64,000 bases of DNA from Myxococcales bacterium (lineage in GTDB: Bacteria > Myxococcota_A > UBA9160 > UBA4427). Numbering within the stretch: position 1 is the first letter of the stretch; every line of letters starts with the position of its first letter. The stretch is from contig DUCN01000098.1 of NCBI GenBank assembly GCA_012959805.1, forward strand, positions 257,646 to 321,645, in the 5' to 3' direction. The position numbers and the translations under genes are program-made. The notes below the pieces were generated by a model. The model was given only the letters and a program-made list of their open reading frames with translations, did not search any database and was not told where the DNA came from. Of this stretch, positions 6,082 through 7,131 are shown piece by piece.

Positions 6082-6825
6082 TCAACCAAGTGCCTCCCGA
6101 ATAACAGACAAGACCCGGTCGGGCCGAGAACGCTCGGTGTAGTCGGCGGCTTGATCGATCCAGCGAACAGTGCCCTTTGCATCCGTGAGGATCGTCGTAG
6201 GAATCGGCAGTCCTTCGATGCCCGGGGGTGTGACTTTTCGTGCTGTATTCTCGATCCCATATTGGCGCGTCACTGCGAGATCACGGTCGGATAACATAAT
6301 GGCCTGTGCACCGTGCTTCTGCCTTCCTTCCGCGATCTGCTTTGGCGTGTCCGTGCAAAGGGTCACCATCGCGATGTTGTGAGCGTCCAAGTCCGTGCGA
6401 AGTTCTTCCCATCGCCGTAACTCGGCGACACAGTAGGGTCACCAGTGGCCACGGAAGAACTTCATCAAGATGGGTCGCCCGTTCAAACTGGCGAGATCAA
6501 AAGCCTTGCCCTCGTGGTCCAAGGCCGTGAATGCGGGAAGCACCTGACCAACCGCGATGGCTGGTTCTTGCTTCGATTGGGGTGCGAGTACTTGGAGCAC
6601 AACGGCGATCGATCCCATCGTCGCCGTGAGCCCGGCCAGAATTCCGCCGACCAGACCCGGGCTTTGGGTGAGAGCGATGACCGAGAGAACGAGTGCTGTG
6701 GCGATCATCGCTGAAGGCAGACGGCGTCCGCTGTCGATCTCGACGCGACTGATCAGGCGCATCCAAAGCGCGATCCCGCCTATCAAGAGTCCGACGGCGA
6801 TTCCCGCCAAGATCAAACCAGTCAT
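6082..6825 (-). CDS. Membrane-anchored AhpC/TSA-type selenoprotein (in-frame UGA read as Sec)
   Basis: Read through one in-frame TGA, this gene gives 247 residues. Residues 1-80 carry three predicted membrane helices (about 3-22, 37-54, 57-80). Residues about 91-247 form a thioredoxin/peroxiredoxin (AhpC/TSA) domain. The redox motif reads FFRGHW-U-PYCVAEL, with the TGA codon at 6439-6441 being residue 129 and the partner Cys residue 132, a UxxC motif where relatives have CxxC. Downstream coding is intact, including the family's cis-Pro segment LPIPTTILTD. A hairpin 16 bases after the TGA fits a bacterial SECIS. AGGAGT lies 7 bases before the ATG. Likely role: thiol-dependent peroxide or disulfide chemistry at the membrane surface. 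Gene finders would split it in two. Neighbour genes use TGA as stop, so global reassignment is unlikely. Confidence 0.85.
6412..6428 (-). promoter_or_regulatory. Bacterial SECIS-like hairpin
   Basis: On the minus strand, TCGCCG, loop AGTTA, then CGGCGA form a perfect 6-bp stem with a 5-base loop; two wobble pairs extend it. The apical loop starts 16 bases after the UGA and has G at its second position. Both agree with the described bacterial SECIS rules (loop about 16-37 bases from UGA, G among the first two loop bases). It lies inside the coding region, as bacterial SECIS elements do. Confidence 0.8.
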
Positions 6826-7131
6826 TCAAGTACTCCTGTCCAAGTTCGTTGTAGGAACGATGATAGGCCGATCGCCTTTCACTTGTTCTCGATTTGAACC
6901 CGCTTCTGATGGGACCCCTATATTTGTTCGAGTCACGGCCTATCCGGTCGCGGGATCGAGACCTCAACTGAAAAACGGGCTGCCACAATCTGACTTTGGC
7001 GTCGTTTCTGCTGAAAAGGGCATCGGAGCCATGCTTGGCTCAGTCATCCCTGAGCCTTCTAGCGCTTTCTCATCACTCTCGGATGGCTCGGCTTGAGCCT
7101 GAAGCGAAGCCAGGGTGGCCGGGCCATTTCT
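6826..7131. other. Intergenic region between tetR and the selenoprotein gene
   Basis: About 306 bases with no convincing gene in any frame. It holds the ribosome-binding site of the selenoprotein gene (minus-strand AGGAGT just above 6825) and a small inverted repeat GGCTC/GAGCC near 7086-7100. No clear promoter or terminator was recognised. Confidence 0.5.

What the first reader, a model, noticed from the sequence alone, without database searches (positions are those of the whole stretch)
6082..6825. Membrane-anchored peroxiredoxin-like selenoprotein hidden by an in-frame UGA
One in-frame TGA (6439-6441, residue 129) sits exactly at the redox-active position of an AhpC/TSA domain (GHW-U-PYC), with intact, family-like coding on both sides and the resolving Cys at U+3. 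The N-terminal three-helix membrane domain fused to it is not the standard AhpC layout. Conventional gene calling would produce two unrelated ORFs. Selenoproteins of the AhpC/TSA type with UxxC are known; this membrane-fused form may be less described.
Basis: partly seen in the sequence, partly recalled or inferred. Interest (0 to 1): 0.9.

Follow-up and report, generated by a model that had tools for sequence, protein, structure and literature searches.

The report
Membrane-anchored selenoprotein read through UGA
This gene has an apparent stop signal in its middle that is almost certainly read as the rare amino acid selenocysteine, giving a membrane-tethered redox protein that standard gene finders would split in two, and the same gene recurs in dozens of related bacteria.

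Summary
On the minus strand, 6825..6082 encodes a 247-residue protein with one in-frame TGA (6441..6439, residue 129, GHW-U-PYC): three predicted transmembrane helices followed by an AhpC/TSA-type thioredoxin fold. Of 91 genomes of the same class, 48 have close homologs (60 copies). All 60 carry exactly one internal stop, and it is always TGA. The genome has tRNA-Sec(UCA), SelA and SelB; SelD is missing from this ~90% complete MAG but present in all eight congeners. A bacterial SECIS hairpin lies 16 nt after the UGA. It shows a freeze of synonymous codons, compensatory base changes in relatives, and loss in Cys homologs. One full-length Cys version is nested in the Sec clade; its 99% complete genome has no SelA or tRNA-Sec. 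Sequencing error, pseudogene and code reassignment are effectively excluded. UxxC Prx-like selenoproteins are a known kind. No NCBIfam or Pfam model covers this membrane fusion, and I found no description of it in the held literature. It lacks the PxxxTxxC peroxiredoxin motif, and the positive-inside rule puts the redox domain in the cytoplasm, unlike ResA/TlpA. The substrate is unknown. Verdict: a genuine, uncatalogued membrane-anchored variant of a known selenoprotein kind.

The parts
6082..6825 (-). complete selenoprotein gene, 247 codons including Sec129, plus terminal TGA stop (6084..6082)
   Evidence: tree and alignment
6833..6837 (-). AGGAG Shine-Dalgarno, 7 nt before the ATG
   Evidence: sequence directly
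6586..6825 (-). N-terminal membrane domain, residues 1-80, three predicted TM helices (2-26, 35-53, 57-79)
   Evidence: AF2 model; charge distribution; no Pfam family above cut-off
6085..6558 (-). AhpC/TSA (peroxiredoxin-like, thioredoxin-fold) domain, residues 90-247
   Evidence: Pfam PF00578 E 8e-24; Foldseek best hits Bcp/PrxQ and ResA
6439..6441 (-). Sec-encoding TGA, residue 129
   Evidence: conserved in all 60 close homologs of the class; aligned Cys (TGC) in L102
6430..6432 (-). Cys132 codon, resolving residue of the UxxC motif
   Evidence: invariant in alignment A1
6410..6430 (-). bacterial SECIS hairpin UGUCGCCG-AGUUA-CGGCGAUG, apical loop 16 nt after the UGA, -9.9 kcal/mol
   Evidence: model constraints in PMC13188914

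Best explanation
The gene encodes a membrane-anchored, UxxC-type AhpC/TSA selenoprotein. During translation, the hairpin just after the UGA recruits SelB carrying Sec-tRNA(UCA), so UGA129 is read as selenocysteine and the ribosome goes on to make a 247-residue protein. Three N-terminal helices anchor it in the inner membrane, with the thioredoxin-fold domain most likely facing the cytoplasm. Sec129 attacks an oxidised substrate, most likely a peroxide (possibly a membrane lipid hydroperoxide) or a disulfide. It then forms a selenenylsulfide with Cys132, which a cytoplasmic thiol reductant reopens. Shown by computation: a conserved recoded UGA, the SECIS hairpin, the Sec machinery, Sec/Cys equivalence, and (by model) the fold and helices. 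Inferred: topology, the U129-C132 redox pair, and substrate class. The substrate itself is not known.
For: All 60 close homologous copies in 48 of 91 class genomes have exactly one internal stop, always TGA, at the same place in the 30 read directly. Three intact copies in the same genome all carry it. tRNA-Sec UCA, SelA and SelB are present. The hairpin meets the published bSECIS constraints. Codon choice at residues 131-138 is frozen: 0.90 identical synonymous codons against 0.49 in the rest of the gene. Compensatory pair changes occur (UA to GC to CG at one pair, CG to UA at another), with 0 of 500 shuffles reaching the covariation score and slid controls lower. The hairpin is lost in Cys homologs. 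Full-length Cys homolog L102 is nested in the Sec clade, and its 99% complete genome lacks SelA and tRNA-Sec. 55 of 56 TGA-carrying genomes in the class have SelA. The AF2 model has pLDDT 91. K/R average 3.9 in loop 1, 0 in loop 2 and 0 at the N-terminus.
Against: SelD was not found in this assembly above cut-off. One relative with the gene, G085 (85% complete), lacks SelA. Homolog L022 has a mismatch in the SECIS stem. There is no conserved gene neighbour to indicate substrate or partner. There is no expression or protein evidence.
Confidence: 0.9

Rival explanations
1. The TGA is a real stop: the gene is a pseudogene, or the TGA is a sequencing or assembly error.
For: The conventional table-11 ORF call splits the gene in two.
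Against: The same TGA, never TAA or TAG, in 60 copies from 48 separate genomes with intact coding on both sides; three intact copies in the same genome; frozen synonymous codons and covariation in the hairpin.
Confidence: 0.02
2. TGA is reassigned to an amino acid throughout this genome (code 4 or 25).
For: In-frame TGAs occur in several AhpC/TSA genes.
Against: TGA is the commonest stop among well-supported window ORFs (21 of 33), ends mfd and this gene itself, and tRNA-Sec with SelA and SelB is present.
Confidence: 0.01
3. It is a selenoprotein, but the redox domain faces the periplasm and it works as a thiol:disulfide oxidoreductase like ResA/TlpA/DsbE.
For: NCBIfam ResA and TlpA models are among the weak hits of all or most members; ResA structures are among the close folds; the WUxxC motif resembles the WCxxC of ResA-type proteins.
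Against: The positive-inside rule: loop 1 carries 3.9 K/R on average, loop 2 and the N-terminus none, which puts the C-terminal domain in the cytoplasm with three helices. Best fold matches are Bcp/PrxQ peroxiredoxins, which are cytoplasmic to my knowledge.
Confidence: 0.15
4. It is a classical selenium-containing peroxiredoxin (PrxU-type) with an added membrane anchor.
For: Peroxiredoxin fold; weak PrxU match in 16 of 27 members.
Against: The catalytic PxxxT/SxxU signature is absent (MKFFRGHWU), and the motif is UxxC rather than TxxU.
Confidence: 0.1

Closest known systems
Prx-like thiol:disulfide oxidoreductase selenoproteins, PF00578, UxxC/UxxU ('Prx-like 1' of the GOS survey, PMC2398784; Table 1 of PMC13188914)
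   Same: AhpC/TSA domain with UxxC, bacterial SECIS directly downstream, Cys homologs.
   Different: The entries name only the domain and motif; no membrane domain is mentioned for them in the text I searched. I could not fetch the representative sequences to see whether some have one.
Redoxin family protein, PF08534, UxxC (listed in PMC13188914; GOS 'Prx-like 3')
   Same: The window protein also matches PF08534 (E 4e-20) and has UxxC.
   Different: GOS reports an 'Unknown_3' fusion for Prx-like 3 whose alignment I could not read; an overlap with this family cannot be excluded.
ResA/TlpA/DsbE and NF041054 (ResA-like WAxxUGC selenoprotein)
   Same: Membrane-anchored thioredoxin-fold redox domain; weak sequence match.
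   Different: Far below every curated cut-off; three helices with a predicted cytoplasmic domain; UPYC instead of UGC.
Bcp/PrxQ peroxiredoxins (e.g. PDB 3hjp, 5epf)
   Same: Best fold matches, about 145-170 aligned columns.
   Different: No PxxxTxxC signature; none of the listed PDB matches is long enough to cover the membrane domain as well.

Membership tests
Bacterial selenoprotein | In-frame TGA aligned with Cys or TGA in homologs, coding conserved on both sides | tested here: met
Bacterial selenoprotein | bSECIS: 3-9 nt loop, 4-16 bp stem, G in first two loop positions, 16-37 nt from UGA, MFE <= -7.5 | tested here: met
   5 nt loop AGUUA, 8 bp, 16 nt, -9.9 kcal/mol; covariation
Bacterial selenoprotein | selA, selB, tRNA-Sec in the genome | tested here: met
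Bacterial selenoprotein | selD in the genome | tested here: inconclusive
   not above cut-off in this ~90% complete MAG; present in all 8 congeners and 75 of 91 class genomes
Bacterial selenoprotein | Selenium in the purified protein / selenium-dependent full-length product | not testable with these tools
   needs experiment
AhpC/TSA superfamily (PF00578) | Score above the curated cut-off | tested here: met
   84.4 bits against 26
Peroxiredoxin (PxxxT/SxxC-P signature) | PxxxT/SxxC (or U) around the catalytic residue | tested here: not met
   MKFFRGHWU in the window protein; KFFR-HWUPYC invariant across the family
UxxC Prx-like thiol:disulfide oxidoreductase | PF00578 domain with UxxC | tested here: met
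ResA/TlpA-type periplasmic oxidoreductase | NCBIfam score above cut-off | tested here: not met
   38.7 bits against 170 (ResA), 24.1 against 230 (TlpA)
ResA/TlpA-type periplasmic oxidoreductase | Periplasmic redox domain | tested here: inconclusive
   positive-inside rule favours cytoplasm; no experiment

The most novel reading that the evidence does not exclude
An uncatalogued selenoprotein family: an inner-membrane, cytoplasm-facing UxxC redox enzyme with its own three-helix anchor. It is present in over half of the genomes of one bacterial class, spread thinly through its phylum, and sometimes in two or three copies. It may repair membrane lipid hydroperoxides or relay electrons at the membrane.
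Probability: 0.55. Interest if true: 0.55.

Novelty: new variant of a known kind. Interest (0 to 1): 0.45.

Why it matters
No curated NCBIfam or Pfam model covers the full-length family, so annotation pipelines will tend to report it as two truncated ORFs, hiding a conserved gene in at least 48 genomes. The genome itself seems selenium-rich: 9 of its 15 AhpC/TSA-domain matches above cut-off contain an in-frame TGA. Its natural Sec/Cys pairs and one clear Sec-to-Cys switch coupled to loss of the Sec machinery make it a good subject for asking what Sec adds at a membrane.

Tried and rejected
Conserved operon or neighbours: none found. The recurring clusters mostly overlap the gene itself and look like antisense or shifted shadow ORFs. 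Minimum-free-energy folding of the whole 60 nt stretch was not significant (z -0.5) and missed the local hairpin; the evidence comes from conservation instead. The candidate SelD at C13 looks like ThiL, judged from its sequence and its low SelD score. The genome-contig scan with Cys at position 129 found only two distant loci. Haft and Tolstoy 2025 is not held. A first genome search used an RNase P family by mistake.

Full report
OBSERVATION. The gene runs on the minus strand from ATG 6825 to TGA 6082. Read with TGA as U it gives 247 residues with U129 in FFRGHWUPYCVAELRRWE; Cys132 is U+3. Without recoding, table 11 gives two ORFs, 6825..6439 (128 aa) and 6390..6082. An AGGAG Shine-Dalgarno precedes the ATG. 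In a six-frame scan of the 64 kb window, this is the only TGA flanked by open frame (at least 30 and 40 codons), with a Cys two residues before it or three residues before or after it, and a bSECIS-type hairpin of -7.5 kcal/mol or better.

CONSERVATION OF THE RECODED CODON. Among 91 genomes of the same class, 57 have a match at E <= 1e-15, and 48 of them have close homologs (60 copies, E <= 2e-40). All 60 have exactly one internal stop, TGA. Only two listed matches, both distant (L106, L107), have none; they carry Cys at that place. Reading 30 homologs directly puts the TGA in the same KFFR(G/A)HW-U-PYCVAELRRWE context. The window genome holds two more intact copies with the same TGA and hairpin. 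Outside the class, 11 further genomes of the phylum have a match at E <= 1e-25. Eight of these carry TGA and three Cys: the full-length L102 and two distant ones.

SEC MACHINERY. The genome has tRNA-Sec with anticodon TCA (68 bits), SelB (281 bits, 647 aa) and SelA (521 bits, 480 aa). SelD was not found above cut-off; the best hit, at C13, looks like ThiL (my reading of the sequence). The MAG is ~90% complete, and all eight congeners and 75 of 91 class genomes have SelD, so an assembly gap is the likeliest reason. SelA is found in 84 of 91 class genomes. Of the seven without it, only G085 (85% complete) carries a TGA version, so 55 of 56 TGA-carrying genomes have SelA.

SECIS. After the UGA comes CCCUACUG and then UGUCGCCG-AGUUA-CGGCGAUG: an 8 bp stem, 5 nt loop with G in second position, loop 16 nt from the UGA, -9.9 kcal/mol. 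This meets the published bSECIS constraints (PMC13188914). Three tests support function. First, synonymous codons in residues 131-138 are frozen (0.90 identical against 0.49 elsewhere; 0.52 for other highly conserved residues). Second, compensatory changes occur in relatives (UA/GC/CG at one pair, CG/UA at another; covariation 0.187 against a shuffled 0.100, 0 of 500; slid controls lower). Third, none of the five Cys homologs keeps the hairpin at that place. The number of covarying pairs is small (two), and shuffles do not control for relatedness; the slid control does. Homolog L022 has one stem mismatch.

NATURAL EXPERIMENT. L102 (genome G372, 99% complete) is a full-length version with Cys (QWCPFC). 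It sits inside the Sec clade in the tree, and its genome has no SelA above cut-off and no tRNA-Sec match at 1e-8. The eight TGA-carrying genomes of the outgroup clade have both, except G222, which is only 78% complete. This is what a Sec-to-Cys replacement after loss of the machinery looks like.

ALTERNATIVES. A global code change is excluded because TGA is the commonest stop in the window (21 of 33 well-supported ORFs) and ends this gene and mfd. Sequencing error and pseudogene are excluded by the conservation.

PROTEIN. Pfam PF00578 84 bits, PF08534 72 bits. No NCBIfam model reaches its cut-off in the window protein; the best scores are 40 bits against 140 (thiol peroxidase) and 39 against 170 (ResA). 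AF2: pLDDT 91, helices 2-26, 35-53 and 57-79, then a thioredoxin-type fold. PDB matches, over about 145-170 aligned columns, are led by Bcp/PrxQ peroxiredoxins and ResA, with no full-length match. The membrane part alone has no Pfam match above cut-off. K/R average 3.9 between helices 1 and 2, none between 2 and 3, none at the N-terminus, and 1.4 after helix 3. By the positive-inside rule the redox domain is cytoplasmic; this is inference. The PxxxT/SxxC signature of true peroxiredoxins is missing.

CONTEXT. The gene is flanked by mfd (convergent) and a TetR-type regulator gene upstream on the same strand about 310 bp away. I found no conserved neighbour in the 33 loci compared, with mechanical ORF calls only, so the context does not identify a partner or substrate.

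MECHANISM. Shown computationally: UGA recoding signals and a membrane-plus-redox architecture. Inferred: Sec129-Cys132 selenenylsulfide chemistry and a substrate at the inner face of the membrane, possibly lipid hydroperoxides. The last step is a guess guided by location and fold.

NOVELTY. UxxC AhpC/TSA ('Prx-like') selenoproteins were already reported in early surveys, and fusions with unknown domains were reported in the GOS survey (PMC2398784; PMC13188914). Neither text mentions a membrane domain for them, but I could not read the representative sequences or supplements, so prior listing cannot be excluded. I file it as a new variant of a known kind.

Noticed in passing
G000 genome-wide (e.g. 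C30:30063, C86:30762, C26:162632, C74:81930, C42:143216, C98:223439): Nine of the 15 AhpC-TSA matches above cut-off in this genome contain one in-frame TGA, suggesting a selenoprotein-rich organism. The six outside this family were not checked for SECIS.
   Followed up: partly
L104, L105, L113, L114: A second related family (DWUPFC/HWUPFC) with N-terminal hydrophobic segments uses a different hairpin: 7-8 bp stem, 3 nt loop GUC, loop 21 nt after the UGA.
   Followed up: partly
class-wide SelD hits: SelD occurs in two forms: a Sec-containing one with one TGA, and a TGA-free one mostly in long frames of about 750 codons or more, possibly the Ndh-SelD fusion described in PMC2398784.
   Followed up: no
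L022:1498-2238 (minus strand): One homolog has a synonymous change (GCC to GCA) that breaks one pair of the SECIS stem; it may be less efficiently recoded.
   Followed up: no
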